From Achromobacter xylosoxidans A8 (GTDB lineage: Bacteria; Pseudomonadota; Gammaproteobacteria; Burkholderiales; Burkholderiaceae_B): DNA of 64,000 nucleotides. The notes under the pieces are model-generated. The model was not told where the DNA came from, ran no database searches, and saw only the letters and a program-made list of their open reading frames with translations. Below, in pieces: positions 3,402 through 41,023 of the stretch. The DNA is taken from contig NC_014640.1 in NCBI RefSeq assembly GCF_000165835.1, positions 3,968,001 through 4,032,000 on the forward strand, read 5' to 3'. The position numbers and the translations under genes are program-made. Position 1 is the stretch's first letter; every line of letters starts with the position of its first letter.

Positions 3402-3857
3402 ATGAGCACACTGACCTTCCGCCCCGCCACCGCCGACGACGTCCCGGCCTGCGTGACGATCCGCGGCCAAACCAGAGAGAACGCGTTTTCCGTCGAAGAA
3501 CTGCGCGCATTGGGCATCACCGTGGACAGCTGGGCCGCCGGCGTCCTTGCGGGAGACCTTCCCGGCTTTGTCGCCTGCGCGGACGGCCGGGTGACAGGCT
3601 ACTGCTACGGCGACCGCGACACCGGCGAAATCGTGGTCCTGGCCCTGCTGCCCGAAAGCGAGAACCAGGGCGCGGGCAAGACGCTGCTGCAGCTGATGGT
3701 CCGGCATCTGGCAAGCCTGGGGCACCAACGCCTGTTCCTGGCATGCGCCAGCGATCCCGCCGTGCGTTCCCACGGCTTCTACCGCCACCTGGGCTGGACG
3801 CCCACGGGAGAACGGGATGAAGCCGGCGACGACATACTGGAACTGTCGATCAGATAA
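3402..3857 (+). CDS. GNAT-family N-acetyltransferase
   Basis: A protein of 151 residues with the GNAT fold, which transfers an acetyl group from acetyl-CoA to an amine. Motif A is visible at about residues 79-98: the strand VLALLP followed by the pyrophosphate-binding loop QGAG (residues 89-92). The C-terminal RSHGFYRHLGW pattern matches motif B. The substrate cannot be told from sequence. The length suits a single-domain GNAT enzyme. I chose the ATG at 3402 because the earlier in-frame codons translate to arginine-rich non-coding-like sequence. The gene converges with the ABC-F gene and their ends overlap by eight bases. Confidence 0.85.
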   Translation: MSTLTFRPATADDVPACVTIRGQTRENAFSVEELRALGITVDSWAAGVLAGDLPGFVACADGRVTGYCYGDRDTGEIVVLALLPESENQGAGKTLLQLMVRHLASLGHQRLFLACASDPAVRSHGFYRHLGWTPTGERDEAGDDILELSIR

Positions 3858-5463
3858 TCTCCAGCCGCCATCCGTCGCTGCCCGCAAGCAGGCGATGCGT
3901 CAGGCCCAGGCTGTCCATGAACGCGTCGTCATGAGACACCACGACCAAGGCGCCCCGGTACGCGCGCAGCATTGCCTCCAACGCCTGCATCGACGGCAGA
4001 TCCAGGTGGTTGCTGGGCTCGTCCAGCAACAGCAGTTGCGCGGGCGGGTCCGCATACAGCGCGCAGGCCAGTGCGGCCTTCAGCCGTTCTCCTCCGCTGA
4101 GCGCGGCACTGGGTACGGCAATCTTGCGCGCGTCCAGGCCAAGCTGGGCAAGGCGCGTGCGCAAGTCAGCTTCCGACGCGCCGCGATTGGCCGCCTGCAA
4201 CTGCTCCAGCACCGGGCGCTGCGGCGCCAGCGTGGCCAGTCCCTGATCCAGATACACGGCCTCTACCGCGACCCGGCATGTCCCGCCCGATGCCTGAAGC
4301 TGCCCAGCCAATACTTTGAGCAAGGTCGACTTGCCGCAACCGTTCGGGCCGACCACTCCCACCCGCTGCTGTCCGCCCAGCATCAGGTCGATGCGGCGCG
4401 TGGCGGCCGGGACAAAGGGCAGTTCCACCCCATCCAGCTCAGCGATGCGCCTCTGCGCAGGCATGGCAGTTGGCGGCGCATGCAGCACGATGGCGTCCTG
4501 GTCCTCGACCTGTTCGGCCGCCTCGCGCACACGCAATGTGAGCTGCTCACTTGCCGCCGCATGCTGGCGGCGCAGCTTGCCCGCGGAGGTTTCGCTGCGC
4601 GCCTTCTGCCGGTCCAGCAGAATCTTGGCCTGATTGGCTTCGCGCCCCTGCCGGTTGCCGCGCGCCTGCCGCCGCTCCTGGCGCTCGCGCTGCTCGCGCA
4701 GGGATTGTTCCTCGCGCTGGCGTTCATGCTTGCGCTGCTCCAGCAGCGACAGCGCGTTGCGCCGCTCCTCTTCCTTGCGCTCGGCATAGAAGCTGTAGCC
4801 GCCCCCGTACCCACGCAGCCCCAACGTCGACAATTCCACGATGCGCTGCATCGCTTCGAGCAGTTGCCGGTCATGGCTGATCGCCAGCAAGCCGCGCGGC
4901 CAGCGTTGCAGTTGCTCGATCAACGCCAGCCGGTTTGGCCTGTCCAGATGATTGGTGGGTTCATCCAGGATCAGAAAGTCGGCCTCCGACAGCAAGGCGC
5001 CGATCAGGGCGACGCGCATGGCTTCGCCGCCGCTGAGCGTGGCGGCCGGCGTCGCGGCGTCGAGATGGCCCAGGCCGCAGCGCTCCAGTTCCTGCTGCAA
5101 TGCCAGGCGCACGTCCCAGCGATCGCCGAGAATGTCGAAGTCCTCGGCGGCGGCGCTGCCTGCTTCGATGCGTCCCAGCGCATCGAGCCTGGCCTGCACG
5201 CCCGCCAGCGCCGCGACGGTCCCGGCTACGCGCGGGGCGGCCTGCTGGGCCAGATAATGCACGCTGCCCGAACGCACGCAGCGGCCGGAGGCCGGCGGCA
5301 ACTGGCCGGCAAGAATGCCGGCCAGCACGCTCTTGCCCACGCCATTGCGGCCCACCAGCCCGGTAGGCCGCAGGTCGAACTGTTCGTTGAGACCGGAGAA
5401 AAGCGTCCTGCCGTCCGGCAGAACATAGGACACGCCTTCCAGCGCGAGATAGGGATTCGTCAT
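3850..5463 (-). CDS. ABC-F family ATPase (soluble, two ATP-binding cassettes)
   Basis: A protein of 537 residues with two ABC cassettes and no membrane segment, typical of ABC-F proteins, which act on the ribosome rather than in transport. Cassette 1 shows Walker A GRNGVGKS (residues about 38-45), signature LSGGEAMRVAL and Walker B LILDEPTNHLD. Cassette 2 shows GPNGCGKST, LSGGERLKAAL and LLLDEPSNHLD. Between them lies the highly charged linker of the family (many R, E, Q). Which member it is (housekeeping, stress or antibiotic protection) cannot be settled here. The ATG at 5463 is preferred to a TTG seven codons upstream, because the encoded MTNPYLALEGV begins the conserved cassette. Confidence 0.9.
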   Translation of the reverse strand: MTNPYLALEGVSYVLPDGRTLFSGLNEQFDLRPTGLVGRNGVGKSVLAGILAGQLPPASGRCVRSGSVHYLAQQAAPRVAGTVAALAGVQARLDALGRIEAGSAAAEDFDILGDRWDVRLALQQELERCGLGHLDAATPAATLSGGEAMRVALIGALLSEADFLILDEPTNHLDRPNRLALIEQLQRWPRGLLAISHDRQLLEAMQRIVELSTLGLRGYGGGYSFYAERKEEERRNALSLLEQRKHERQREEQSLREQRERQERRQARGNRQGREANQAKILLDRQKARSETSAGKLRRQHAAASEQLTLRVREAAEQVEDQDAIVLHAPPTAMPAQRRIAELDGVELPFVPAATRRIDLMLGGQQRVGVVGPNGCGKSTLLKVLAGQLQASGGTCRVAVEAVYLDQGLATLAPQRPVLEQLQAANRGASEADLRTRLAQLGLDARKIAVPSAALSGGERLKAALACALYADPPAQLLLLDEPSNHLDLPSMQALEAMLRAYRGALVVVSHDDAFMDSLGLTHRLLAGSDGWRLEII

Positions 5464-5600
5464 GTGCGGTTCCAAGGATGCCAAGAACTCCCCCTGCTCT
5501 TTGGGGGTGGGTGGAGACTGGCCGTCGTGCAGACGGCGGCATCAATGACGCATGGCGAATGACTCCTGGTGGGGTGATTGATCCGACATTGTAATGGCGA

Positions 5601-6491
5601 TTACCGCCTGACCTGGGCGTCCTGCTCGATCGTGGCAAGCAGGACGCGCCTGAGCGCGCTGGTCAGGTGGCTGCGCGCCTCGTTCTCGAACAGTCCGACG
5701 GTCCGTTGCGCGGACGGGTCATCGAAATAGGTCACGCGTAGGCGCGGATCTTCCTCCCAGTGCGCCGCCCGCGTGAGCGGCACGATGGTCACGCCGACAT
5801 CCTGGTGGACCAGTTCGACCATGGTCCGCAGTGAATTGATTTCCAGGAAATCGCCGAACTTGAGATGGTTCCTGCGGATGAAGGCATCGATCAGCGCCCC
5901 CGTATGCGTATCGCGCGAAGGCCGCAGGAACAGGCGCCGCGCCATCAGGCTGGCAATGTCCGCCTTGCCCGCCGCCTGGCGGTTGGCGATGAACACGAAG
6001 GGTTCCGTGTAGAGCGGGGTCCATTGCGTGCCGGAAGGCAGTTTGTGGGCATTCTTGACCGCCAGGGCCGCGTCCAGTTCCCCTGCCCGCACCCGCAGCG
6101 ACAGGTCGCCGGAAAAACTGATCACGGGCTGCACGTTCAGCTTGGGATGCGAGTCCCGCAAGGTCAATACGGCGCGCGCCAGGAACGCCATAGAGGTGCC
6201 CACCGATCCCACATCGATGGAACCCACCAGCTCGTCGCCGCCGGGGCCGTCGCGCAGATCGTCGTACACCGCCAGCAGTTGCTCCGCGCGCGGCAGCAGG
6301 CGGTGTCCGCCTTCGCTCAGGGACACGATCTTGCCGCTGCGGTCGAACAGGCTGACGCCCAGGTCGTCTTCCAGCGCGCGCATCTGCAGGCTGACCGCCG
6401 CGGGCGTCAGCGACACCCGTTCCGACGCGGCGGCGAACGAGCCGCTGCGGGCCACGGCAACAAAGGTGCGAAAGAAGCGGATCGAACTCAT
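5601..6491 (-). CDS. LysR-type transcriptional regulator of the adjacent ABC/C45 cluster
   Basis: A protein of 296 residues with the LysR layout. The N-terminal winged helix-turn-helix (about residues 5-62) includes RSGSFAAASERVSLTPAAVSLQMRALEDDLG. The effector-binding domain follows from about residue 90. It is transcribed divergently from the peptide-type ABC transporter operon starting at 6676. That is the classical arrangement for a LysR protein controlling its neighbour and itself. The shared 184-base intergenic region holds an AT-rich inverted repeat (6534-6553) that could be its binding site. The co-inducer is unknown; by context it would be the imported compound or a breakdown product. 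Confidence 0.9.
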   Translation of the reverse strand: MSSIRFFRTFVAVARSGSFAAASERVSLTPAAVSLQMRALEDDLGVSLFDRSGKIVSLSEGGHRLLPRAEQLLAVYDDLRDGPGGDELVGSIDVGSVGTSMAFLARAVLTLRDSHPKLNVQPVISFSGDLSLRVRAGELDAALAVKNAHKLPSGTQWTPLYTEPFVFIANRQAAGKADIASLMARRLFLRPSRDTHTGALIDAFIRRNHLKFGDFLEINSLRTMVELVHQDVGVTIVPLTRAAHWEEDPRLRVTYFDDPSAQRTVGLFENEARSHLTSALRRVLLATIEQDAQVRR

Positions 6492-6533
6492 GTGACGGGC
6501 GCCCTATCGGTAAGAAGAACTTTATATACCACA

Positions 6534-6553
6534 AAGTAATTTTAGTTTTACTT
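6534..6553. promoter_or_regulatory. AT-rich inverted repeat in divergent LysR/ABC promoter region
   Basis: AAGTAA and TTACTT face each other across an eight-base spacer, in a stretch far more AT-rich than the surroundings. It lies 43 bases from the LysR start and about 120 bases from the permease start. LysR proteins bind dyads of this kind (T-N11-A type) between divergent genes. The assignment to this regulator is an inference from position. Confidence 0.45.
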
Positions 6554-6675
6554 CTTTATGACAGGACGTCAAAGTTACGCCATCCCGCAGCCGAGCCGGC
6601 ATACGCGGTCCCGTCAACCGTATCGTCACCATCGCGCCGCGCCGCCGGCGCCGGGACGTGAGCTACGAGCCCCCT

Positions 6676-7620
6676 ATGCTTCGCTTCGCACTCTCGCGCA
6701 TCGGAATGGCCATACCGACACTGCTGATCGTGTCCGTCGCCGTTTTCGTGCTGATCCGCTTGATCCCCGGCGATCCGGCCCAGCTGCTGCTGGGCGACCT
6801 TGCCGACCCCGCCAGCCTGGAAGAACTGCGCCAGCGCATGGGCCTGGACCAATCCTGGCCCGCCCAGTTCGCCTTGTGGTTCGGCAATCTGCTGCATGGC
6901 GACCTGGGGAAATCCATTACCACCGGCCAGGCGGTGCTGGCCCTGGTGTGGGACCGCTTCCTGGTCAGCGCTCCCATCGTGCTGGCCGCCGTGGCCGCCG
7001 CCGCCCTGGTCGCGGTGCCGGCGGGCATCATCGCCGCCTGGCGCCAGAACCGCGCCGCCGACATCGCGCTGGTCGGCATGGCCACGCTGCTGGTGTCCAT
7101 TCCCACCTTCTGGCTGGGCCTGCTGCTGTTGCTGCTGCTGGGGCTGAAGCTGGAATGGCTGCCGGTCGTGGGCTACGTGTCGGTGTCGGAGGACGCGGTC
7201 GCGGGCCTGCTGTACCTGGCCATGCCCATCCTGACCCTATTCCTGCATGAGATCGGCGTGCTGATGCGCATGGCGCGCGCCAGCGCCCTGGAAGTCCTGC
7301 GCCTGGATTACGTAACCCACGCCCGCGCCAAGGGCCTGAGCGAACGCGCGGTGCTGACCCATCACGTATTCAAGAACTCCTTCGGCCCCACCTGGACCCT
7401 GATCGGCCTGGTGCTCGGCAATCTGCTGGGCGGCATCGCCGTGGTGGAAACCGTGTTCACGATACCCGGCCTGGGCCGTCTCCTGGTCGATTCCATCTTC
7501 GCCCGCGACTACCCGGTGATCCAGGGTTGCCTGCTGTTCGTCGCGGTCATCTATGTGCTGGTCAACCTCTTCGTCGACCTGCTCTATCCCGCCTTCGATC
7601 CCCGCGTTGGAGCCGAGTAA
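6676..7620 (+). CDS. Peptide-type ABC transporter permease (DppB/OppB-like)
   Basis: A protein of 314 residues with the six-helix DppB/OppB layout, an inner-membrane permease for peptide or peptide-like solutes. It begins with MLRFALSRIGMAIPTLL and the family pattern LIRLIPGDPA. The cytoplasmic EAA loop appears as DYVTHARAKGLSERAVLTHHVFKNS (about residues 215-240), and the C-terminus ends with DPRVGAE. A GTG at 6658 could add six residues; I prefer the ATG because MLRFALSR matches the usual family start. It is the first gene of a co-directional run of seven and lies divergent from the LysR gene. The next permease starts six bases after its stop. Confidence 0.9.
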   Translation: MLRFALSRIGMAIPTLLIVSVAVFVLIRLIPGDPAQLLLGDLADPASLEELRQRMGLDQSWPAQFALWFGNLLHGDLGKSITTGQAVLALVWDRFLVSAPIVLAAVAAAALVAVPAGIIAAWRQNRAADIALVGMATLLVSIPTFWLGLLLLLLLGLKLEWLPVVGYVSVSEDAVAGLLYLAMPILTLFLHEIGVLMRMARASALEVLRLDYVTHARAKGLSERAVLTHHVFKNSFGPTWTLIGLVLGNLLGGIAVVETVFTIPGLGRLLVDSIFARDYPVIQGCLLFVAVIYVLVNLFVDLLYPAFDPRVGAE

Positions 7621-7626
7621 ACCGCC

Positions 7627-8481
7627 ATGCAACTGACCGCCATCAATCCCATCAAGCCCCGGCGCCGCCGCCTGCCCGCCAATGCGGCCATAGGCGGAGT
7701 CATCATCGCGATCGTCGTGGGCGCCGCCCTGCTCGGCGCGGTGTGGACCCCGCGCGACCCGCTGGGCATCAGCTTCGCGTCGCGGCTCAAGCCGCCTGGC
7801 GCCCAGTTCTGGCTGGGCACCGACGAATTCGGCCGCGACGTGCTCAGCCGCCTGATGGTCGGCGCCTCGACCAGCGTCTGGATCAGCCTGCTGACCGTCT
7901 CGTTCTCCGTCGTGCTGGGTACCGCCATCGGCGTGCTGACCGGTTTTGTGCGGGGCTGGACCGACCGCATCATCATGGCCTTCAACAACGCCCTGCTGGC
8001 CTTTCCCGGCCTGCTGCTGGCACTGGGCCTGCTGGCGGTGGTGGGCGCCAACAAGTACGGCATCATCCTGGCGCTGGGCCTGGCTTACACGCCTTCGGTG
8101 ACGCGGATCGTGCGCGGCACGGTGCTGTCGCTGCGCGAGAAGGAATTCATCGAATCCTCGCGCGTGCTGGGCAACTCCGAGCTCTACACCATGTTCCGCC
8201 ACGTGCTGCCGAATTGCGTGGCGCCGCTGACGGTGCTGGCCACGTCCATGTTCGGCTGGGTGATCCTGGCGGAAAGCGCCCTGTCCTTCCTGGGCCTGGG
8301 CGTGCCGCCGCCCGCGCCGACCTGGGGCAACATGCTGGCCTCGGCCCGTCCGTTCATGGCGCAGGCTACGTATCTGAGCATCTTCCCCGGCATCTGCATT
8401 TCGCTCACGCTGCTGGGCATCAACCTGCTGGGCGACGCCGTGCGCGACCGCCTGGATCCGCGCATGCGCACGGGTGAATGA
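7627..8481 (+). CDS. Peptide-type ABC transporter permease (DppC/OppC-like)
   Basis: A protein of 284 residues, the second permease of the importer. It has the DppC hallmarks: an N-terminal helix, the conserved FWLGTDEFGRDVLSRLM stretch (about residues 60-75), an EAA loop around EFIESSRVLGNSELYTMFRHVLPNC and the terminal pattern GDAVRDRLDPRMR. It would pair with the upstream permease to form the channel. Six bases separate the two genes. It ends inside the start region of the ATPase gene, so the three are translationally linked. The substrate is unknown; the binding protein at 11341-12894 sets specificity. Confidence 0.9.
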   Translation: MQLTAINPIKPRRRRLPANAAIGGVIIAIVVGAALLGAVWTPRDPLGISFASRLKPPGAQFWLGTDEFGRDVLSRLMVGASTSVWISLLTVSFSVVLGTAIGVLTGFVRGWTDRIIMAFNNALLAFPGLLLALGLLAVVGANKYGIILALGLAYTPSVTRIVRGTVLSLREKEFIESSRVLGNSELYTMFRHVLPNCVAPLTVLATSMFGWVILAESALSFLGLGVPPPAPTWGNMLASARPFMAQATYLSIFPGICISLTLLGINLLGDAVRDRLDPRMRTGE

Positions 8482-8482
8482 C

Positions 8483-10138
<1,656 letters not shown>

Positions 10139-10169
10139 TGTCCACGGCTCCGCACGCACAGGAACAGAC

Positions 10170-11300
10170 ATGACGGCAGCAGCGTTCTTCCCTCTGGTTG
10201 AAGTGTCCGGCGCGCCCTACGAGCGCGGACTTCAGCATGGACGCCTGGCAGGCGGGCGCGTGCGGCGCAGCGCCGACATCTACGCCCGTGCGTTGCAGCA
10301 GTTCCGGTACTCGCCCGCCGACCTGCAACGGCTCATCGCGCGCTTCTCGCGCGCCGTCGAGGACTTCGAACCCGACTACCTGGAAGAGATGCGCGGCATC
10401 GCCGAAGGCGCCGGCGTTTCGTTCGAAGACGTGCTGATGATCAACGCCCGCACCGAAATCGTCGCCCAGGCCCGCCGCGCACATCTGGCCGCCGGCGCCG
10501 CGCCGCAAAGCGACGAATGCACGGGCGCCGCCATCCTGCCGGAACGCAGCGCCAACGGCAATTTCCTGCAGGGCCAGAACTGGGACAACCGCCAGGATTG
10601 CGCCGACACCATCATCATCCTGCGCGTGCTGCGCGACGACGGCCCCGACGTGCTGACGTTCGTCGAAGCCGGCGGCCTGGCGCGCTATGGCATGAACTCC
10701 GCTGGACTGACCCTGAACGGCAACGGCATGTCCTCCAGCCGCGACTACCTGCAGGACGGCGTGCCTCTGCCGCTGGTACGCCGCAAGGCGCTGGAACAGG
10801 AACATTACGCCCTGGCCCTGCAGGTCGTCACCGGCACACCCAAGGCCTGCTCATGCAACCTGATCCTGGGCACCCAACTGGGCCTGGCGCTGAGCCTGGA
10901 ATGCGCGCCCGACGAGACCTTCCTGGTCTATCCCGAGGACGGCCTGCTGGTCCACGCCAACCACTGGACCAGTGCCGTCGCGCTCGGCAAGCTGCAGGAG
11001 ACAGGCATCGCCAGTTCGCCGGAAAGCCTGTACCGCGATCAGCGCGTGCGCCAGAGCCTGTCCGCCGCGGGCCGCAAGCTCGGCGTGCAGGATCTCAAGA
11101 CCGCTTTCGCCGACACCCACGCCACCCCGTTTTCCGTCTGCCGGCCGGGGCGTGTCAGCGCCCAGGGCTATGCGTCCTGCACCACCGCCACGCTGATCAT
11201 GGAACCCGCCGCCGGCGTGCTGGAAGTGGCGCGCCTGCCTTGGCAGGGCGCCGCCTACGCCCGCTACGGGGTGGCACGCGGATCGTCCCCTTCCTATTGA
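10170..11300 (+). CDS. C45-family Ntn-hydrolase (acyl-CoA:6-APA acyltransferase-like), first copy
   Basis: A protein of 376 residues in the C45 (isopenicillin-N acyltransferase-like) family. Its members cut themselves before a cysteine that then acts as nucleophile on amide bonds. The likely nucleophile is Cys117 in SDECTGA. Family patterns nearby include EEMRGIAEGAGV, INARTEI, GQNWDN and EAGGLARYGMNSAGL. It lacks an evident signal peptide, so it probably acts in the cytoplasm on the imported substrate. It lies 31 bases after the ATPase gene and 40 bases before the binding-protein gene. A clear paralogue sits at 13974-15098. The true reaction (acyl transfer or amide hydrolysis) cannot be read from sequence. 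Confidence 0.85.
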   Translation: MTAAAFFPLVEVSGAPYERGLQHGRLAGGRVRRSADIYARALQQFRYSPADLQRLIARFSRAVEDFEPDYLEEMRGIAEGAGVSFEDVLMINARTEIVAQARRAHLAAGAAPQSDECTGAAILPERSANGNFLQGQNWDNRQDCADTIIILRVLRDDGPDVLTFVEAGGLARYGMNSAGLTLNGNGMSSSRDYLQDGVPLPLVRRKALEQEHYALALQVVTGTPKACSCNLILGTQLGLALSLECAPDETFLVYPEDGLLVHANHWTSAVALGKLQETGIASSPESLYRDQRVRQSLSAAGRKLGVQDLKTAFADTHATPFSVCRPGRVSAQGYASCTTATLIMEPAAGVLEVARLPWQGAAYARYGVARGSSPSY

Positions 11301-11340
11301 ACGTCTTCCAGCTGCAAACCGCTCACAACAAGGATCCATC

Positions 11341-12894
11341 ATGAAACGACCTCTGTATGCGTACACCGCCCTGGCCGCCCTCCTGACGGCCGCCGCGCCT
11401 GCCCTGGGCGCCACCGTGCTGCGTGCCCACCAGGACGCGGACATCCGCAGCAGCGATCCGGGCGTCAACCGCGACGCCAATACCGATGGGGTAATCCTGC
11501 ATGTCGTCGAAGGCCTGGTCGGCTACGACGCCAAGGGTCAGCCCGCTCCCCTGCTGGCGGAGAAAATCGACGTCTCCGAAGACGGCAAGACCTACACGTT
11601 TCATCTGCGGCAGGGCGTGACCTTCCACAATGGCGCGCCTATGACCGCCGACGACGTGGTCTGGAGCTGGAACCGCTACATGGATCCCAAGACCGGCTGG
11701 CGCTGCCTGACGGACTTCGATGGCCGCATCGGCCTGAAGGTGGAAGGCGCCGCCGCCACCGATCCCGCCACCGTCGTGTTCAAGCTGGACCGGGCCGCGC
11801 CGCTGTTCCTTGATTCGCTGGCGCGCAGCGACTGCGGCATGACCGCCATCACCCACCGCGACTCGGTCAAGCCCGACGGCACCTGGGACAAGCCCATAGG
11901 CACCGGCCCCTTCCGCTTCGCCGAGTGGCGCCGCCGCGAATACGTCAGCCTGACGCGCTTCGAGAACTACGCCAACCGGCCGGGCAAGCCCGACGGCTAC
12001 GTGGGCTCCAAGCGTCCCCTGGTCGACGAAGTGCGCTTTGTCGTGATCTCCGACCCGGCGACGGCAAAAACCGCCCTGGCCAGCGGCGCCATCGACGTAA
12101 TGTCCAAGGTGCCATATTCCGAGGTCGCGGAACTAGCGGAAAACAAGGCCATCAGCACGAACGTGTCGCCCCAGCTGGCGCCTTCCACGCTGACGATCCA
12201 GACCCGCGACAAGCTGCTCTCCAATCCCTATCTACGCCAGGCCATCGCCGCGGCACTGAACTACAAGGAACTGGTCGCAGGCGTGACCTACGGCCTGGCC
12301 GAACCCAACAACTCGCTCGTGCCCGTGGCGTCGCCCTACTATGGGGAAGCCGAAAAGAAAGGCTATGTCTACGATCTGGCGCGCGCCAAGGCGCTGCTCG
12401 CCAAGGCCGGCTACAAGGGCGAGAAGATCGTCATTTCGACCAACAAGCGCAATCTGCCGAACTATGACGCGGCGGTGATCACCCAGGCCATGCTGCAGCA
12501 GGCCGGCATCAACGCCGACATTGAAGTGCTGGAATGGGGCGCCCAACAGGACAAGTGGCAGAAGGGCAACTACCAGATGATGTCGTTCTCGTACTCCAGC
12601 CGCATGGATCCCGCTCTGAGCTTTGAAGCCGTCACTGGCGACAAGGCCAGCCAGCCGCGCAAGCTGTGGGACGATCCCGGCGCCCGCGCGCTGCTGGAAA
12701 AAGCCACCAACGCCACGGCGCCGGCCGAGCGCCAAGCCCTGCTGGACCAGCTGCACCGCCTGATGCTGGAGCAGGTCCCGATCATCCCCTTGTTCAACAC
12801 GCTGAGCACGGGCGCATACCGCAAGAACGTCCAGGGTTTCGAATCGTCGATCTTCGGCGCGCCGCTGCTCTGGGAAGTCTCGAAGACCGAATAG
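11341..12894 (+). CDS. Periplasmic peptide/nickel-type substrate-binding protein (SBP family 5)
   Basis: A protein of 517 residues. Residues 1-23 form a Sec signal peptide with a likely cut after ALGA. The mature part has the SBP family 5 layout, with VEGLVGYDAKGQPAPLLAEK near the start and the family hallmark YTFHLRQGVTFHNGAPMTADDV at about residues 80-101. It would capture the substrate in the periplasm and deliver it to the permeases encoded at 6676-8481. It is placed after a C45 hydrolase gene rather than at an operon end, which supports co-expression of uptake and breakdown. The ligand is unknown; family members bind peptides, opines, glutathione or antibiotics. Confidence 0.9.
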   Translation: MKRPLYAYTALAALLTAAAPALGATVLRAHQDADIRSSDPGVNRDANTDGVILHVVEGLVGYDAKGQPAPLLAEKIDVSEDGKTYTFHLRQGVTFHNGAPMTADDVVWSWNRYMDPKTGWRCLTDFDGRIGLKVEGAAATDPATVVFKLDRAAPLFLDSLARSDCGMTAITHRDSVKPDGTWDKPIGTGPFRFAEWRRREYVSLTRFENYANRPGKPDGYVGSKRPLVDEVRFVVISDPATAKTALASGAIDVMSKVPYSEVAELAENKAISTNVSPQLAPSTLTIQTRDKLLSNPYLRQAIAAALNYKELVAGVTYGLAEPNNSLVPVASPYYGEAEKKGYVYDLARAKALLAKAGYKGEKIVISTNKRNLPNYDAAVITQAMLQQAGINADIEVLEWGAQQDKWQKGNYQMMSFSYSSRMDPALSFEAVTGDKASQPRKLWDDPGARALLEKATNATAPAERQALLDQLHRLMLEQVPIIPLFNTLSTGAYRKNVQGFESSIFGAPLLWEVSKTE

Positions 12895-12904
12895 GAACGC
12901 CGCC

Positions 12905-13945
12905 ATGAATCAAACCCTGTACCTGCTGGGCGACATCAACCTCAAGGGCGTGCCAGACGCCAGCGGCCTGTTCGATCACGTCCGCCAGCCGCTGCGTGTA
13001 GCGGACCTGGTGTTCGCCAACCTGGAATGCTGCCTGTACGACCTGCCCGAACACGCCCAGGAGCGGCGCGGCTTCTATACCTCGCCGAGGCACGCGCAGG
13101 CCCTGCGCGAAGCCGGCCTGCAGGCGGTCGGCAATGCCAACAACGTCAACATCGGCCACGAGGCGGTGCTGTCCACGCTGGCCGCCTTGCGGGGCGCTTC
13201 CCTGCCCAGCGTCGGCGCGGGCGCCAATGCCAGCGAGGCCCGCGCCCCGCTGATCGTAGTCAGGGACGGCGTGCGCTACGGCTTCCTGCAGCGCACCGCC
13301 GTGTACTGGCCGGACAATCATGAGGCCAGCGCCCACCATGCCGGCGTCGCCATCATCCGCGCGCATACCGCCTACCGGCCGCGGCTGGAAATGCAGGCGG
13401 CGCGCACGCGCCCCGGCGTGCCGCCCGAAGTGCTGACCTGGGCCGACCCGGAGTCGCTTGCGCAGTTCCGCGCCGACGTGGCGGCGCTGCGGCAACAGGC
13501 GGACATCGTCATCGCCTCGCTGCACTGGGGCTACCGGCGCGAAGTGCTGCAGTACCAGCGCGAGTACGCGCATGCGGCCGTCGAAGCCGGCGCCGACATC
13601 GTGCTGGGACACGGTCCGCACATGATCCTGCCGATCGAACTGCATCGCGGCAAGCCCATCCTCTATGGCAGCGGCAACTTTTCCTTCCAGGTTGCCCACC
13701 AGGCTGACGCGCATACCGAATGGACCGGCATGACGGTCCGCGTCGACATCCGCGACAAGCGCCCCGCCGCCATGCAGTTCCGTTTCGTGCAGCGCAACAG
13801 CGCCAACCAGACCGTGTTCGTGCCCGCGTCCGAAGTGGCGCAAGAACGCGACCTGCTGATGCGCGCGTCCGCCGCGCTGGGCGCCGACCTGCATATCAGC
13901 GCCGACGGCCTGCAACTGGACCTGGCCGGCCCCGCCGCCTCCTGA
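12905..13945 (+). CDS. CapA-family metallophosphoesterase-fold protein
   Basis: A protein of 346 residues of the CapA/PgsA-like family (calcineurin-like fold), known from poly-gamma-glutamate capsule loci. Visible elements are GDINL near the N-terminus, the FANLECCL strand, LHWGYRREVL and GHGPHMILPIE followed by GKPILYGSGNF. The usual NNH motif is altered: here the sequence reads NANNVNIGHE, so the metal-binding histidine may be shifted or lost. There is no signal peptide, unlike many capsule CapA proteins, so a cytoplasmic role with the two C45 hydrolases is more likely. The gene lies ten bases after the binding-protein gene and 28 bases before the second C45 gene. Confidence 0.8.
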   Translation: MNQTLYLLGDINLKGVPDASGLFDHVRQPLRVADLVFANLECCLYDLPEHAQERRGFYTSPRHAQALREAGLQAVGNANNVNIGHEAVLSTLAALRGASLPSVGAGANASEARAPLIVVRDGVRYGFLQRTAVYWPDNHEASAHHAGVAIIRAHTAYRPRLEMQAARTRPGVPPEVLTWADPESLAQFRADVAALRQQADIVIASLHWGYRREVLQYQREYAHAAVEAGADIVLGHGPHMILPIELHRGKPILYGSGNFSFQVAHQADAHTEWTGMTVRVDIRDKRPAAMQFRFVQRNSANQTVFVPASEVAQERDLLMRASAALGADLHISADGLQLDLAGPAAS

Positions 13946-13973
13946 ACCTCCGTTACTCCGAATTGATGCTCCC

Positions 13974-15098
13974 ATGAAATACGCCCCGTTTCCTCTCGTC
14001 TCGATCTCCGGCAGCCCCTTTGAACGTGGCGTGCAATACGGCCGCGCCGTGCCCGAACGCATCGCTCACAGCGCCCGGCACTATCGCGGCGAACTCGACA
14101 AGATCGGCACTCCCCCCGCCACCCAGGCCGCCCTGATCAAGGAGTTCGCCGACCAGATCCAGAAGTTCGACCCCGCGCACACCGAGGAGATGCGCGGCAT
14201 CGCGGAAGGCGCCGGCTGCGCCTTCGACGACGTGGCGCTGATCAACGCCCGCACCGAGGTCATCGCCAAGGCACGGCTGCAGGCCAAGATGGGCAACCTG
14301 GATCCCGCCGAAGGCGAATGCACCGCCGCCCTGGTCATGCCCGGGCGCAGCGCCACGGGCAATCTGATCCATGCCCACAACTGGGATTGGGAGCCAGACG
14401 CCTGCGACAGCACCATCGTGCTGCGCGCCACCCTGGAAACCGGCATCACCTTCCTGACGCTGGTGGAGGCTGGCGGCCTGGCGCGGCACGGCTTCAACTC
14501 GGCCGGCATCGGCCTGACCGGCAACTATCTCAGCAGCGACCGCGACTACACCCAGTCCGGCGTGCCGCTGAGCAGCGTGCGGCGGGCGGTCCTTAGCCAG
14601 CAGCACGTCGCCATCGCCATGCAACTGATCGCCGCCACGCCCAAGGCCTGCTCCAGCAACATGATCGTCAGCCAGGCCGGCTGGGTGATCGACTTCGAAT
14701 GCGCGCCCGACGAGAGCTTTACGCTGCTGCCGCAGGACGGCCTCTTGACCCACTCCAACCACTTCATGAGCGAAGTGGCGCTGGGCAAGCTGCGTGAAGC
14801 TGGCCTGAAGAATGCCGTGGACACCTACTACCGGGCCTGGCGCGTGCGCCAGTTGCTGGACGCCTGCGGCCCCCGGATCACGGTGGCTGACGTGCGGCGC
14901 GCCCTGGCCGACGACTGGGCCACGCCCTATTCCGTTTGCCGTCCGCCGCGCGGCACCTTGACGGGCGGGCGCTCGGCCACGGTGGCGACCCTGGTGATGG
15001 ACACTGCCGGCCACACCATGGATATCGCCGCCATGCCCTCTTTCGGGCAGTTCTTCACCCGCTATGGTCTGACGGGCGAGGCCTATTCCATCGACTGA
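13974..15098 (+). CDS. C45-family Ntn-hydrolase (acyl-CoA:6-APA acyltransferase-like), second copy
   Basis: A protein of 374 residues and a close paralogue of the protein encoded at 10170-11300. Both share FPLV.(V/I)SG.P(Y/F)ERG near the start, EEMRGIAEGAG, INARTE, the cysteine context ECT and the stretch EAGGLAR.G.NSAG. The expected nucleophile is Cys116 in GECTAAL. No signal peptide is seen. Two diverged copies in one operon suggest different substrate preferences or a hetero-oligomer, although gene redundancy is also possible. Its last 16 bases overlap the end of the convergent LysR gene. It is the last gene of the ABC/C45 cluster. Confidence 0.85.
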   Translation: MKYAPFPLVSISGSPFERGVQYGRAVPERIAHSARHYRGELDKIGTPPATQAALIKEFADQIQKFDPAHTEEMRGIAEGAGCAFDDVALINARTEVIAKARLQAKMGNLDPAEGECTAALVMPGRSATGNLIHAHNWDWEPDACDSTIVLRATLETGITFLTLVEAGGLARHGFNSAGIGLTGNYLSSDRDYTQSGVPLSSVRRAVLSQQHVAIAMQLIAATPKACSSNMIVSQAGWVIDFECAPDESFTLLPQDGLLTHSNHFMSEVALGKLREAGLKNAVDTYYRAWRVRQLLDACGPRITVADVRRALADDWATPYSVCRPPRGTLTGGRSATVATLVMDTAGHTMDIAAMPSFGQFFTRYGLTGEAYSID

Positions 15099-15991
15099 TC
15101 GGGCAGGCAGGACCGAGCCCGCGCTTCGTCCTGCCAATACTCGCGGCAAAAATCCAGATACGCCCGCACAACGGACGAAGGATGCCGGTGCGAGGGATAC
15201 AGCAAGTTCAGTTCCTGTTCCGGCAAGGGGTACCCATCGAGCACGCCCACGAGCCGCCCCGCGCGCAGGTCTTCGGCGGCAAGGAACAATGGCAATTCCG
15301 TCACGGCCTGGCCGGATAGCGCGCGATGGCGCAAGTGGGCGTAGTCGTTCGTGGACAGGATCGGGCGTGGATGGAACGCCGTTCCCCCCAGATGCCATAC
15401 CGGCGGTTCGTAGCCTGCGCGCGCCCAGGCCGCGCAGGGCAGCCGGTGCAGGTCTTCCGGCACAGCGGGATAGCCCAGCCGTTCGAGCAAGGAGGGACTG
15501 GCGACCAGCCGGTGCCGGTACTGCAGGATTTTCCGCGCAACCATGGACTCATGTTCGATCGCGCCCACGCGCAAGGCCACATCGATGCCGTCGACAATCA
15601 AGTCGACGCGCCGCTCCGTCGTGTGGACAAAGAGCCGTATGCCCGGATAACGCTGCTGGAACGCAGCCAGCAGGTCCCACCAGATATCGAACGACGGCGG
15701 CAGCGACAGGCGCAGCAGTCCCTCCAGTTGGCGCTGCGCATTGAGCACCGCCTCTTTCGCGTCCATCAAGGCCTCGATGCCGCGGCTGGCGTGCTCGTAT
15801 AGCCTGGCGCCGGCATCCGTCAACTTCGTTCCCCTGACTGAACGCTCGAACAGCTGCACGCTGAGCTGCTTCTCGAGTTCGCGGATGCGGCGGCTCAAGG
15901 TGGGCAACGGCACACCGGTGCGCGCTGCGGCAGCGGACAAGCTGCCTGCGTGCACCACGGCGACGAACATCTCGACCGCGTTGAGGTCCAT
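15083..15991 (-). CDS. LysR-type transcriptional regulator, divergent from a nitroreductase-like gene
   Basis: A protein of 302 residues. The N-terminal winged helix-turn-helix reads VHAGSLSAAAARTGVPLPTLSRRI within residues 14-37. The CrgA-like effector domain (LRLSLPPSFD, then DGIDVALRVG) follows. It is divergent from the nitroreductase-like gene at 16103 and the quinone-oxidoreductase gene behind it, with a 111-base shared promoter region. It most likely controls that redox pair. Its 3' end overlaps the convergent C45 gene by 16 bases. Regulators of this subgroup often respond to aromatic or electrophilic compounds, but the ligand here is unknown. Confidence 0.9.
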   Translation of the reverse strand: MDLNAVEMFVAVVHAGSLSAAAARTGVPLPTLSRRIRELEKQLSVQLFERSVRGTKLTDAGARLYEHASRGIEALMDAKEAVLNAQRQLEGLLRLSLPPSFDIWWDLLAAFQQRYPGIRLFVHTTERRVDLIVDGIDVALRVGAIEHESMVARKILQYRHRLVASPSLLERLGYPAVPEDLHRLPCAAWARAGYEPPVWHLGGTAFHPRPILSTNDYAHLRHRALSGQAVTELPLFLAAEDLRAGRLVGVLDGYPLPEQELNLLYPSHRHPSSVVRAYLDFCREYWQDEARARSCLPDQSME

Positions 15992-16102
15992 TCATTCCTC
16001 TCAATTTCGATAGGAAGTTTATCGGTTTTGGCGATTCCGGCAAACCTGCGCTATCGGCATAGTGAGGGCGTGTTCCCTCTAATCCGATCACTGGAGATCG
16101 CC

Positions 16103-16717
16103 ATGAAAACCGTAGAAACACTATTGAAATCAAGAGTTTCCACCAATAAATATGACTCTGACCGCACTTTATCAGACCTTGAAATCGATAAGCTCATCCA
16201 GCTGGCGACCCTGGCCCCCTCTGTCTTCAATGTCCAGAATTGGAAGTTTGTGGCGGTACGCAGCGCCGCCGGCAAAGCCAAGCTGCTGCCGCTAGCCTAT
16301 GGTCAGGCAAAGGTCGCCGACGCCGCCGTCACGTTCATTGTTTGCGGAACGCTCGCGCCCCATGCCACGCTGCCCGCCGCGCTCCAGCCCTCGGTCGAGC
16401 GCGGCATTCTGGACGACGCGACCCACGCGGGCTGGGTCGCCGCCGCGAACAGCATGTACAGCGACAACCCGGCGCTACAGCGCGACGAAGCCATACGCTC
16501 GGCCTCGCTCGCCGCCATGACGTTGATGCTGGCGGCGCAGGATCGCGGCCTGGCTTCCGGGCCCATGATCGGGTTCGATCCGCAAGGCGTTGCCGCGGCT
16601 TTTGGCCTGCAAGCCGACGAAGTGCCGGTCATGCTCGTGACCGTCGGCTACGCCGCTCCCGGCAACTGGCCGCAGAAGCCTCGTAAAGCCACTGCCGACG
16701 TCCTGTCCTACGCCTGA
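16103..16717 (+). CDS. Nitroreductase-family flavoprotein
   Basis: A protein of 204 residues with the nitroreductase fold, an FMN-dependent NAD(P)H oxidoreductase. Family features are the N-terminal LLKSRVSTNKYDSD, the flavin-binding ATLAPSVFNVQNWKFVAV (about residues 35-53) and the C-terminal GLASGPMIGFDPQGV region. The usual first arginine pair (RRS) is replaced by KSRVS, a mild deviation. The substrate may be a nitroaromatic or quinone, but could be other. A GGAG seven bases upstream supports the ATG at 16103. The gene is divergent from its probable LysR regulator and 40 bases from the next oxidoreductase gene. Confidence 0.85.
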   Translation: MKTVETLLKSRVSTNKYDSDRTLSDLEIDKLIQLATLAPSVFNVQNWKFVAVRSAAGKAKLLPLAYGQAKVADAAVTFIVCGTLAPHATLPAALQPSVERGILDDATHAGWVAAANSMYSDNPALQRDEAIRSASLAAMTLMLAAQDRGLASGPMIGFDPQGVAAAFGLQADEVPVMLVTVGYAAPGNWPQKPRKATADVLSYA

Positions 16718-16757
16718 CCCGTCCACACACACACTTGATTCTGAACAAGGAAAAGCC

Positions 16758-30618: not shown

Positions 30619-32766
30619 ATGAAAGACCAAAAAAACACATCACGTACAGTCTTTACACTACGCCCGCAACACGCATTGACGCTATTGGGTCTGGTCGCCG
30701 CCGCGCCGGTGCTTGCACAACAGACTGCAGGGGAAACCATCAGCACATTGCCCAGCGTCACCATCAGCGGCACGGCCGATACCGGCACTGGTCCAGTGCA
30801 GGGCTACGTGGCGGAAGACACCACATCGGGCAGCAAGACCGACACGCCGTTGCGCGAGATTCCGCAATCCGTCTCGGTGGTAGGCGCGGAGGAAATGCGC
30901 GATCGCGGCGTGCAAAGCGTGTCGCAGGCGATTCAGTATGTGCCGGGCGTGCAGGTCACCAACTTCGGTGGCGCCGAAGTGCGCAACGACTGGATCGTGC
31001 TGCGCGGCTTCGACGCCAAGATCACCGGAGACTACCGCGATGGCCTGAACCAACTGCCGTATGACCAGATCCGGGCGCGCACCGACCCTTACGCGCTCGA
31101 GCGCGTCGAGGTGATCCGTGGCCCCTCCTCGGTGCTGTACGGGCAGGTGGCGCCCGGCGGCCTGGTCAATCGCATCACCAAGCGCCCGACGCTGGATCCT
31201 TTCGGCGAGATCGTGCTGCAAGCCGGCAATTTCGACCGGCGCCAGGCCGCGTTCGATATCGGCGGCCCGATAGATGAAGACCGCAAATACCTGTACCGCC
31301 TGACCGGCGTCCTGCGCGATGCCGGCACCCAGGTGGAATATGACGGCGACCACCGCTACCCGGATGACCTCGGATACATTGCGCCGGCCTTCACCTGGCG
31401 CCCGAATTCAGATACCTCGTTCACGCTGCTGACCCACTACCAGCACGACGAGACCGATGGCGAATCGCGCCCGGTCTTCCCGACCCACGTCCCCGTTGGC
31501 GACTATGGTTTCAACCGGTACGACCGCAAGCAATACGCGATCGGCTACGTGTTCGAGCACCGCTTCAACGACAGCATCATGCTGCGCCAGAACGCCCGCT
31601 ACCAGCACGGCAAGCTTGACCAGCGCGACCTCTACAGCCTGGGGCTGCGGCCCGACGGCCACACATTGCGCCGCTACGCGCTGGTATCCAAGGAAAGCGC
31701 CGACGGTGTGGTCGTGGACACGCAAGGAGAGTTCCGCTTCAATGCCGGCCGCGCCGCCCATACGCTGCTCGCCGGCTTCGACTATCGATTCCAGGATGGC
31801 CAGCAATGGTATCGGCAGGGCCTCGCCCCCGACCTGGACCTGGACAATCCGGTCTACGACCAGAATATTCCGTATCCGGGCGCCGCCAATGCCATCATCG
31901 ACCAGAAGGACGTCAACCGGCAGTATGGCCTGTACCTGCAGGACCAGATCAAGATCGATCGCGTGGTGGTGACGGCCGGTCTGCGCCACGATTGGGCCAG
32001 GTCCGACAGCCGCAACCGCATGACCAGCACGACAACCCGCCAGAACGATACCGCTCTGACAGGTCGCCTGGGGCTGGCCTACCTGTTCGATTCCGGCCTC
32101 ACGCCTTATGTCAGCTATTCGACCTCTTTCAACCCGCAATCGGGCGTGTCGATGGACTCAACCCCGTTCAAGCCGACCAAGGGCGAGCAATACGAGTTCG
32201 GCATCAAGTACCAACCTCCGGGTTCCAGGAGCATGGTGGCCGCGTCGTTCTTCGACCTGACGCAACGCAATGCGCTCACCCCCGACCCCCGCAATACCAA
32301 CTTCAGCGTCCAAACCGGCGAGATCCGCTCGCGCGGAATCGAACTCGAAGGCAAAGCCAACCTGACCCGCAACCTGGACGTGCTGGCCTCGTATACCCTC
32401 AACGACGTCACCGTGACCCAGAGCAACAACCCGCTCGAGAAGGACAACACGCCCATCGTGACGCCGCGGCACATGGCCTCGGCCTGGGTCAACTACACCT
32501 TGTCCGACACCGCGCTGCGCGGATTGGGCATGGGCGTCGGCGTGCGCTATATCGGCAAGACCTATGTCAACGTCGCCAACACCATGGAGAACGGCTCATC
32601 GTTCATGGTCGACGCCGGCCTGCATTACCAGCTCGACAAATGGCGTTTCGCACTCGACGCCACCAACCTCTTCAACCGCGAGACCATCGTGTGCCGCAAC
32701 AACCAGACCAACTGCCGGTACGGCCTGGAGCGGACCTTCATCGCCAGCGTGGCGTACCGCTGGTAG
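30619..32766 (+). CDS. TonB-dependent siderophore receptor (no STN domain)
   Basis: A protein of 715 residues, an outer-membrane TonB-dependent receptor. A signal peptide ends near residue 33 (PVLAQQ). The plug domain follows (about 70-185) with PQSVSVVGAEEMRDRGVQSV and the barrel entry VRGPSSVLYGQVAPGGLVN-like stretch. The barrel ends in the terminal aromatic SVAYRW. The layout is that of FoxA/FhuA-like hydroxamate receptors. It lacks an N-terminal signalling domain and so takes up ligand without direct sigma signalling. It is convergent with a FecI-like sigma gene (32882-33406), 115 bases away. It is clearly related to the STN-bearing receptor at 33471-35855. The ligand is unknown. Confidence 0.9.
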   Translation: MKDQKNTSRTVFTLRPQHALTLLGLVAAAPVLAQQTAGETISTLPSVTISGTADTGTGPVQGYVAEDTTSGSKTDTPLREIPQSVSVVGAEEMRDRGVQSVSQAIQYVPGVQVTNFGGAEVRNDWIVLRGFDAKITGDYRDGLNQLPYDQIRARTDPYALERVEVIRGPSSVLYGQVAPGGLVNRITKRPTLDPFGEIVLQAGNFDRRQAAFDIGGPIDEDRKYLYRLTGVLRDAGTQVEYDGDHRYPDDLGYIAPAFTWRPNSDTSFTLLTHYQHDETDGESRPVFPTHVPVGDYGFNRYDRKQYAIGYVFEHRFNDSIMLRQNARYQHGKLDQRDLYSLGLRPDGHTLRRYALVSKESADGVVVDTQGEFRFNAGRAAHTLLAGFDYRFQDGQQWYRQGLAPDLDLDNPVYDQNIPYPGAANAIIDQKDVNRQYGLYLQDQIKIDRVVVTAGLRHDWARSDSRNRMTSTTTRQNDTALTGRLGLAYLFDSGLTPYVSYSTSFNPQSGVSMDSTPFKPTKGEQYEFGIKYQPPGSRSMVAASFFDLTQRNALTPDPRNTNFSVQTGEIRSRGIELEGKANLTRNLDVLASYTLNDVTVTQSNNPLEKDNTPIVTPRHMASAWVNYTLSDTALRGLGMGVGVRYIGKTYVNVANTMENGSSFMVDAGLHYQLDKWRFALDATNLFNRETIVCRNNQTNCRYGLERTFIASVAYRW

Positions 32767-32881
32767 ACGGCCAGGTGGATCCTGGTCTGGCCGGGCTCAT
32801 GGAACTGGCCGCCGTCAGCGACGGCCAGCCCATACGCGGGGCGGGCCGGCACTGCCCCCGCTCCGCTACGACGCCGCCCCG

Positions 32882-33406
32882 TCAATCCGGCTGCAGGCAT
32901 TCGTGGCAGGAACTCAGCGCCAGATGGGCGTCGCGGATCATGAAATTGACCAGCGCTGTCGAAACCCCCAGCTCACGCGCCACGTCACGCTGCGTGCATC
33001 CTTCGAACCGGTGCAGTTCGAAGGCCCGGCGGGTACGTGCCGACATCTGCGTCAGCGCGGCGCTCGCCATCCTGAGCGCCTGGCTGCTCACCGCGGCGTC
33101 TTCCGCCAGCGAGGCCGACACCGCGTGGCGACCGGCTTCCTCGTCCGCGAAAAGCCGTTGCTCCAACGCACGGCGCCGATGGCAATCGATCGCCAGATGC
33201 CGCACGGTCTGGTACAGGTAGGCCGCCGGCTCGCACACGCCTTGCGGCACCGCGCCCTCGAGCAGCTTGACATAGGCATCCTGCACCACGTCCTCAGCCA
33301 ACTCCTGCGAATCCAGAATACGCAGCGCCGCACGCACCAGCTGCCGCCGGTTCGCCGCGTACAGTGCGGTCAGTGCTTCCATCGTCGGCGCAGTGCCCGT
33401 AACCAT
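32882..33406 (-). CDS. ECF sigma factor, FecI-like
   Basis: A protein of 174 residues with regions 2 and 4 of an ECF sigma factor. Region 2 includes DSQELAEDVVQDAYVKLLEG; region 4 includes LHRFEGCTQRDVARELGVSTALVNFMIRD. This is the iron-starvation (FecI) type. A strong AGGAGGT precedes the ATG at 33406. It has no FecR gene of its own next to it; the nearest FecR lies at 35980-36966. It is placed 65 bases downstream of the STN-bearing receptor gene on the same strand and may be co-transcribed with it. It probably directs transcription of one of the two receptor genes. Confidence 0.85.
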   Translation of the reverse strand: MVTGTAPTMEALTALYAANRRQLVRAALRILDSQELAEDVVQDAYVKLLEGAVPQGVCEPAAYLYQTVRHLAIDCHRRRALEQRLFADEEAGRHAVSASLAEDAAVSSQALRMASAALTQMSARTRRAFELHRFEGCTQRDVARELGVSTALVNFMIRDAHLALSSCHECLQPD

Positions 33407-33470
33407 GTGTACCTCCTCGAGCGCCAGGCGCCCAGGTCATAGTCCGACACCGCCCCTTGATGGAGCGGCA

Positions 33471-40970: not shown

Positions 40971-41023
40971 GCCCGCGTCCGCAAGTTGCCGTTGCGTGGC
41001 TGCGTCGCGCTACCAAATGCCGA

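What the first reader, a model, noticed from the sequence alone, without database searches (positions are those of the whole stretch)
5601..15098. Importer interleaved with two paralogous C45 Ntn-hydrolases and a CapA-like protein
Seen in sequence: a LysR gene divergent from DppB- and DppC-like permeases, a fused DppD-DppF ATPase, a C45 hydrolase, an SBP family 5 protein, a CapA-like protein and a second C45 hydrolase, all close together on one strand. Known: C45 enzymes cut or transfer at amide bonds; CapA proteins occur in poly-gamma-glutamate loci. Inference: this is a dedicated uptake-and-cleavage system for an amide or gamma-linked peptide, lactam or related signal molecule, and I know of no described system with this set.
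Basis: partly seen in the sequence, partly recalled or inferred. Interest (0 to 1): 0.75.

Follow-up and report, generated by a model that had tools for sequence, protein, structure and literature searches.

The report
Conserved amide importer with cytoplasmic hydrolases
A gene set shared by several environmental bacteria looks like a dedicated system that takes up a small amide-linked compound, probably of the gamma-glutamyl type, and cuts it inside the cell, and it includes an unstudied branch of the CapA protein family whose usual catalytic residue is missing.

Summary
LysR, DppB, DppC, fused DppDF, C45a, SBP5, CapA-like and C45b lie at the stated places in an Achromobacter genome as a tight operon (gaps -8 to 40 bases). 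The set is not strain-specific. The whole order is in 6 of 43 Achromobacter genomes. CapA orthologs (57% identity or more) sit in C45/SBP5/Dpp loci in 11 of 11 genomes, including two other genera of the family and three alphaproteobacteria (Bosea, inferred). Fetched CapA relatives at 33-50% do so in 0 of 15 loci.

In 4 of the 11 loci a gamma-glutamyltransferase without an evident signal peptide follows CapA or C45b, in one case exactly where C45b stands here. This supports a gamma-glutamyl-type amide cargo imported whole and cut in the cytoplasm. C45 plus Dpp importer is itself a wider module, often with an omega-aminotransferase AptA.

The CapA branch lacks the His of the metallophosphatase and MslH epimerase site (120 of 120 homologs listed) and has an invariant Cys pair there. 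A capsule role is unlikely. The nearest described systems are S. aureus gisABCD-ggt, E. coli iaaA-gsiABCD and Pseudomonas aap/pipR. The ligand and the CapA reaction remain unknown.

The parts
5601..6491 (-). LysR-type regulator, divergent from the operon
   Evidence: Pfam HTH_1 and LysR_substrate; same divergent place in L062-L064, L066, L086, L087, L088
6534..6553 (.). AT-rich inverted repeat AAGTAA-N8-TTACTT in the divergent promoter region, candidate LysR site
   Evidence: identical in the 6 Achromobacter rows aligned; its right part, TTTTA(A/G)TTTTACTT, is also in L087 and L088; binding is inferred
6676..7620 (+). DppB/GsiC-like permease (alternative GTG start 6658)
   Evidence: BPD_transp_1 134 bits; 41% to E. 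coli GsiC
7627..8481 (+). DppC/GsiD-like permease
   Evidence: BPD_transp_1 98 bits; 40% to GsiD
8474..10138 (+). fused DppD-DppF ATPase
   Evidence: two ABC_tran stretches plus oligo_HPY; 42% over 577 positions to E. coli GsiA
10170..11300 (+). C45a, Ntn-type acyltransferase/amidohydrolase proenzyme, predicted nucleophile Cys117
   Evidence: NF040521 282 bits, cut-off 85; PDB relative 2x1d E 2e-26; conserved columns kept
11341..12894 (+). solute-binding protein family 5, presumably periplasmic; Arg421 at the place of the DppA Asp
   Evidence: SBP_bac_5 317 bits; Arg in 55 of 55 module SBPs aligned
12905..13945 (+). CapA-like calcineurin-fold protein of a branch without the catalytic His; no signal peptide seen by eye
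   Evidence: PGA_cap 173 bits; AF2 pLDDT 92.3, MslH best match; motif comparison
13974..15098 (+). C45b, second C45 proenzyme, predicted nucleophile Cys116
   Evidence: NF040521 275 bits; clade of its own at 100/100, sister to the C45a clade at 88/97

Best explanation
The operon is a scavenging pathway. The SBP captures a small amide-linked compound that presents a carboxylate (inferred from an Arg at the place where DppA has its amine-binding Asp). DppB-DppC driven by the fused DppDF ATPase brings it in whole. In the cytoplasm the two C45 Ntn-hydrolases cleave its amide bond, most likely a gamma-glutamyl-type (omega-acyl) amide, because a gamma-glutamyltransferase without evident signal peptide stands beside CapA in relatives of the operon. 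The CapA-like protein is a cytoplasmic metal-site enzyme of unknown reaction acting on the same compound, not a capsule protein. The LysR protein probably controls the operon through the conserved repeat at 6534-6553. Shown here: gene content, conservation, conserved catalytic columns of C45, predicted fold of CapA, absence of the CapA His. Inferred: ligand class, order of steps, cell location, regulation.
For: Whole set in 6 of 43 Achromobacter genomes; CapA orthologs in 11 of 11 such loci against 0 of 15 fetched CapA relatives at 33-50%. GGT over the TIGR00066 cut-off in 4 of 4, with a TTH motif in 4 of 4 and a start directly at the domain in L119, L122, L123 (the called start of L088 adds about 18 residues). 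L119 has DppDF-C45a-SBP-CapA-GGT where the window has DppDF-C45a-SBP-CapA-C45b. GGT at 50% or more is in none of 31 C45-Dpp loci without CapA. C45 with a Dpp permease or ATPase within 7 kb: 16 of 20 plasmid places read out of 36 hits, 6 of 8 phylum-sample loci newly fetched (6 of 9 with G006, locus L071), 7 of 10 other Achromobacter loci read. Characterised C45 enzymes cut amides: AzsT removes succinyl in vitro (PMC10445470 passages), Tan degrades N-beta-alanyl dopamine (PMC10194958 passages). A cytoplasmic Ggt fed by an ABC importer is shown in S. aureus (PMC10355420 abstract and passages).
Against: No ligand, no biochemistry. GGT is absent from 7 of 11 CapA-type loci: the window (tblastn over all 64 kb), its five Achromobacter orthologs and L087. 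In other C45-Dpp loci the partner is often an omega-aminotransferase AptA (12 of 31 at 50% identity or more), which points to other amides, so C45 alone does not fix the ligand. In the order sample only 2 of 12 C45 loci have Dpp; several sit with TctC and polysaccharide-deacetylase-like genes instead. L122/L123 and L088 each lack one of the two C45 genes, so the pair is not essential. The Arg-for-Asp argument rests on recalled DppA structure and on sequence alignment only.
Confidence: 0.55

Rival explanations
1. The cargo is an amide of an omega-amino acid (beta-alanyl or gamma-aminobutyryl type); C45 frees the amino acid, which an AptA-type transaminase elsewhere in the genome degrades.
For: AptA over the NF052567 cut-off in 5 of 6 aminotransferases tested beside C45 loci; AptA at 50% or more in 12 of 31 C45-Dpp loci, with 3 more at 30-33%, one of them in this same genome (L047); the C45 enzyme Tan degrades N-beta-alanyl dopamine.
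Against: No AptA in the 10 other CapA-type loci as fetched or in the 64-kb window; GGT appears in 4 of them instead.
Confidence: 0.25
2. It is a functional analogue of the known glutathione importers: glutathione or its disulfide is imported and the gamma-glutamyl bond is cut inside, with C45 enzymes standing in for Ggt.
For: Similar make-up to gisABCD-ggt and to E. coli iaaA-gsiABCD; permeases and ATPase 40-42% to GsiC/GsiD/GsiA; GGT in 4 related loci.
Against: All four Gsi equivalog cut-offs missed; SBP only 26% to GsiB and different at the Arg421 column; glutathione alone would not explain CapA, two C45 enzymes, or AptA in sister modules.
Confidence: 0.2
3. It is a degradation route for beta-lactams or N-acyl homoserine lactones (self-protection or quorum quenching).
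For: The only solved C45 relatives found are acyl-coenzyme A acyltransferase chains (2x1c/2x1d; recalled to be the Penicillium penicillin acyltransferase).
Against: None of the operon genes is a lactamase or lactonase (flanks of the orthologs were not annotated for this); a dedicated high-affinity importer is not the usual way such compounds are handled (inference); several annotated sister modules sit with aminotransferases, aldehyde dehydrogenases or amidases.
Confidence: 0.06
4. The CapA-like protein is part of poly-gamma-glutamate capsule synthesis, and the rest is peptide uptake by chance next to it.
For: PGA_cap domain, 173 bits.
Against: Orthologs stay in the importer locus in 11 of 11 genomes of four genera; no signal peptide seen by eye; catalytic His absent; no other capsule family among the ten proteins.
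Confidence: 0.02

Closest known systems
Staphylococcus aureus gisABCD-ggt (glutathione import system)
   Same: ABC importer (recalled to be of the peptide/nickel class) with a gamma-glutamyl hydrolase that works in the cytoplasm on cargo imported whole (PMC10355420, abstract and passages); 4 of 11 CapA-type loci have GGT too
   Different: window has two C45 enzymes instead of Ggt, plus a CapA-like protein and LysR; different phylum; sequence comparison with Gis proteins was not made
Escherichia coli iaaA-gsiABCD
   Same: Ntn-hydrolase gene in front of ATPase, SBP5 and two permeases; 40-42% identity of ATPase and permeases
   Different: hydrolase is an isoaspartyl peptidase of another Ntn family; no CapA; no C45; Gsi equivalog cut-offs not reached
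Pseudomonas sp. GM79 aapA-F / pipA / pipR
   Same: peptide ABC importer linked to peptidases and a regulator, importer needed for the response (PMC4981722 passages); AapF, which I take to be its SBP, is the second best solved relative of the window SBP (7kz8)
   Different: peptidases of another class, LuxR-type regulator, no CapA or C45 in the passages read
MslH lasso-peptide epimerase (8gq9, 8gqb)
   Different: His88/Asp91 dyad absent (two-residue deletion, Asp to Asn), H261 is Gly, 21-26% identity, NF038314 93 of 700 bits
C45 family: AzsT, Tan, solved acyltransferase 2x1d
   Same: Cys nucleophile and conserved columns kept
   Different: none of the passages read describes a C45 enzyme tied to a dedicated importer

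Membership tests
C45 autoproteolytic acyltransferase/hydrolase (NF040521) | profile score over the curated cut-off | tested here: met
   282 and 275 bits, cut-off 85
C45 autoproteolytic acyltransferase/hydrolase (NF040521) | Cys nucleophile at the start of the mature beta chain | tested here: met
   Cys117/Cys116; column is Cys in 68 of 69 rows, a gap in one
C45 autoproteolytic acyltransferase/hydrolase (NF040521) | self-cleavage of the precursor | not testable with these tools
   needs purified protein
PGA_cap / CapA fold family (PF09587) | profile match and calcineurin-like fold | tested here: met
Canonical metallophosphatase/MslH active site | catalytic His and Asp of the NHxxD motif | tested here: not met
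   120 of 120 listed database homologs (of 576 found) have no His and no insert in ANN..G; 25 of 25 fetched loci at 41% or more lack it, 12 of 12 more distant ones have it
Lasso peptide epimerase MslH (NF038314) | equivalog score 700 bits | tested here: not met
   93 bits
Poly-gamma-glutamate capsule synthesis locus | CapB/CapC synthase genes beside CapA | tested here: not met
   none among the ten proteins scanned between 3850 and 15991
E. coli-type glutathione importer Gsi | equivalog scores for GsiA, GsiB, GsiC, GsiD | tested here: not met
   456 of 1077, 128 of 594, 239 of 463, 231 of 484 bits
gisABCD-ggt | Ggt gene in the importer operon | tested here: not met
   no GGT relative in the window; present in L088, L119, L122, L123
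PepT/Dpp importer (SBP5, two BPD permeases, double ATPase) | all components encoded together | tested here: met
DppA-type dipeptide binding | Asp that holds the peptide alpha-amine (mature D408, recalled) | tested here: not met
   Arg in 55 of 55 module SBPs aligned; the alignment gap could shift by one column

The most novel reading that the evidence does not exclude
The CapA-like protein represents an undescribed enzyme class: a cytoplasmic calcineurin-fold protein that keeps most metal ligands, has lost the catalytic His/Asp dyad, carries an invariant Cys-Cys pair next to the metal-binding Glu, and works with C45 or GGT enzymes on an imported gamma-glutamyl-type amide; related CapA proteins at 40-50% identity, several of them beside TctC or NMT1 receptors, would serve other importers in the same manner.
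Probability: 0.35. Interest if true: 0.7.

Novelty: new variant of a known kind. Interest (0 to 1): 0.52.

Why it matters
Most bacterial C45 and CapA-like proteins are named after penicillin or capsule enzymes that they may not resemble in function. This shows that one large C45 group often travels with a Dpp importer in Pseudomonadota, and that one CapA branch belongs to the same catabolic-looking setting. It gives a concrete, testable ligand class (gamma-glutamyl-type amides) and would correct many misleading 'capsule synthesis' and 'penicillin acyltransferase' annotations. It also raises the question which reaction a CapA fold without its catalytic His carries out.

Tried and rejected
Literature: searches list no described C45-Dpp or C45-CapA system (some returned only unrelated papers, 300-paper and listing caps apply); the library holds open-licence PMC papers only, so absence in print is not shown. 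The PipR/AapF lead gave an analogue, not the same genes. CapA on plasmids: no match at 1e-30. CapA in 249 genomes of an alphaproteobacterial order gave nothing at 1e-85, a phylum sample of 397 genomes had it at 1e-90 only in the own genome; the family and genus searches then found it. So the CapA-type operon is rare. Promoter/terminator scan of 6300-6800 found nothing. The CapA model was not among the files for scripts, so the Cys pair could not be placed against the metal site. Rejected: chance adjacency (operon spacing, 11 of 11 conservation); capsule role; epimerisation by the MslH mechanism.

Rows dropped before counts: the SBP alignment kept only hits of 38% identity or more and over 400 residues; the C45 tree left out the 6 rows of three near-duplicate Achromobacter loci (L063, L066, L086), none fell for length; 16 of 36 plasmid C45 hits were not read; of 54 rows outside the CapA loci 10 places were read; of 576 CapA homologs found the 120 listed were compared and 43 used for the model. 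Gene calls in L068, L069 and L091 failed in my Achromobacter-trained caller, so tblastn was used for counts.
Full report
What is there. The window is part of a 7.36-Mb genome whose closest named relatives are Achromobacter species (91-97% for C45b). Searches confirm every gene in the finding. The genes from DppB to C45b are on one strand, with gaps of 6, -8, 31, 40, 10 and 28 bases; LysR is divergent, and a second LysR gene converges from the other side. GC content is like that of the surroundings.

Conservation. The CapA-like protein occurs in 6 of 43 Achromobacter genomes, and all six have the full order LysR / DppB-DppC-DppDF-C45a-SBP-CapA-C45b (window, L062, L063, L064, L066, L086); two of them (L064, L086) add a second SBP after C45b. 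In the same family 4 further genomes in a sample of 200 have a relative. Two of these, at 63% and 58%, carry the operon: L087 as LysR / DppB-DppC-DppDF-SBP-C45a-SBP-CapA-C45b, and L088 as LysR / DppB-DppC-DppDF-SBP-CapA-C45b-GGT, its DppDF lying in two frames. The other two, at 45% and 44%, do not. In an alphaproteobacterial genus 3 of 66 genomes have it at 58-62%; I infer Bosea, because named Bosea CapA proteins are among the database hits and the one of Bosea sp. Root381 lies on a contig of 5,870 bases, the length of the L119 contig. All three carry C45, SBP and, in L119 only at the contig edge, the importer, and in all three GGT follows CapA directly. So 11 of 11 orthologs at 57% or more are in this setting, against 0 of 15 fetched relatives at 33-50%, many of which have TctC or, in one case, NMT1 receptors nearby.

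The C45 side. A C45 protein beside a Dpp importer is a wider pattern. Within 7 kb of the C45 gene a DppB, DppC or DppDF relative was found in 16 of 20 plasmid places read (36 were hit), in 6 of 8 newly fetched loci from a phylum-wide sample of 397 genomes (6 of 9 with G006), in 7 of 10 other Achromobacter loci read, but in only 2 of 12 loci of the order sample. The 16 plasmid records are of Phyllobacterium, Tistrella, Shinella, Klebsiella, Pseudoroseomonas, Rhizobium, Chelatococcus, Sinorhizobium, Ensifer, Burkholderia, Neorhizobium, Microvirga and Ponticoccus. Several loci without Dpp have TctC and polysaccharide-deacetylase-like genes. Aminotransferases beside five proteobacterial C45 loci all pass the NF052567 omega-aminotransferase AptA cut-off; a sixth, archaeal, does not. 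By similarity AptA (50% or more) is in 12 of 31 C45-Dpp loci without CapA, with three weaker hits, and in none of the CapA loci. In the tree C45a and C45b of the CapA loci form two clades, each at 100/100, that are sisters at 88/97, so the pair probably arose by duplication within this kind of locus; the C45 of L122 and L123 falls outside both (many branches of the tree are long or open).

Cargo. GGT of the CapA loci passes TIGR00066 (4 of 4), has the TTH motif and in three of four starts directly at the domain. It is in none of the 31 C45-Dpp loci without CapA at 50% or more, and not in the window. In S. aureus a Ggt without secretion signal, fed by the GisABCD importer, was shown to be cytoplasmic (PMC10355420, abstract and passages). 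The exchange of C45b and GGT behind CapA is the best clue to a gamma-glutamyl-type amide. Known C45 enzymes fit omega-acyl amides: AzsT takes off succinyl (PMC10445470, passages); Tan degrades N-beta-alanyl dopamine (PMC10194958, passages). All 55 SBPs of the modules that I aligned have Arg where DppA has Asp436 or its neighbour; from recalled DppA structure this Asp holds the peptide amine, so a carboxylate-bearing ligand is inferred.

Regulation. The repeat AAGTAATTTTAGTTTTACTT (6534-6553) is identical in the six Achromobacter rows aligned, and its right part recurs in two other genera.

Verdict. An ordinary importer type joined to a conserved set of amide-cleaving enzymes: a new variant of the gis-ggt / iaaA-gsi kind, with one really unexplained part, the His-less CapA branch. 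Literature searches list no description of it in open-licence PMC papers.

Noticed in passing
L047 (G000:C1:1670001-1690000), 7925-16737: A second C45-SBP-DppB-DppC-DppDF operon in the same genome, with divergent GntR/FCD regulator and an AptA-type omega-aminotransferase.
   Followed up: partly
L048 (G000:C1:1495001-1515000), 6016-12895: Third C45 locus of the genome: C45-SBP behind two polysaccharide-deacetylase-like (weakly PuuE-like) genes and a TctC receptor, with a mutator-family transposase alongside.
   Followed up: partly
L051, L053, L055, L056, L058, L059, L061, L089, L090, L120: CapA-like relatives at 40-48% with the same His-less motif have TctC receptors nearby or, in L120, an NMT1 protein next door: other importers may be paired with the same CapA branch.
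   Followed up: partly
L122:3163-4047; relatives in L092, L094, L095, L100-L102, L104, L106, L115, L123: A 294-residue protein without any Pfam match recurs in C45-Dpp loci (46-84% identity); in L092, L094, L095 and L100 the records name a hydrolase or alpha/beta hydrolase at about that place.
   Followed up: no
window 3850-5484: ABC-F protein resembling ribosome-protection factors (NF000355, 328 bits, cut-off 380, so below it).
   Followed up: no
window 40077-43476: LysR, sulfatase and TctC receptor side by side in a slightly lower-GC stretch.
   Followed up: no
window 30796-35780: Two convergent TonB-dependent receptor genes.
   Followed up: no
L118 (Halocatena plasmid): An archaeal C45 gene (32%) lies among M20-type deacylases, an aminotransferase and a methylmalonate-semialdehyde dehydrogenase: the C45 amide-catabolism theme may extend to archaea.
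   Followed up: no
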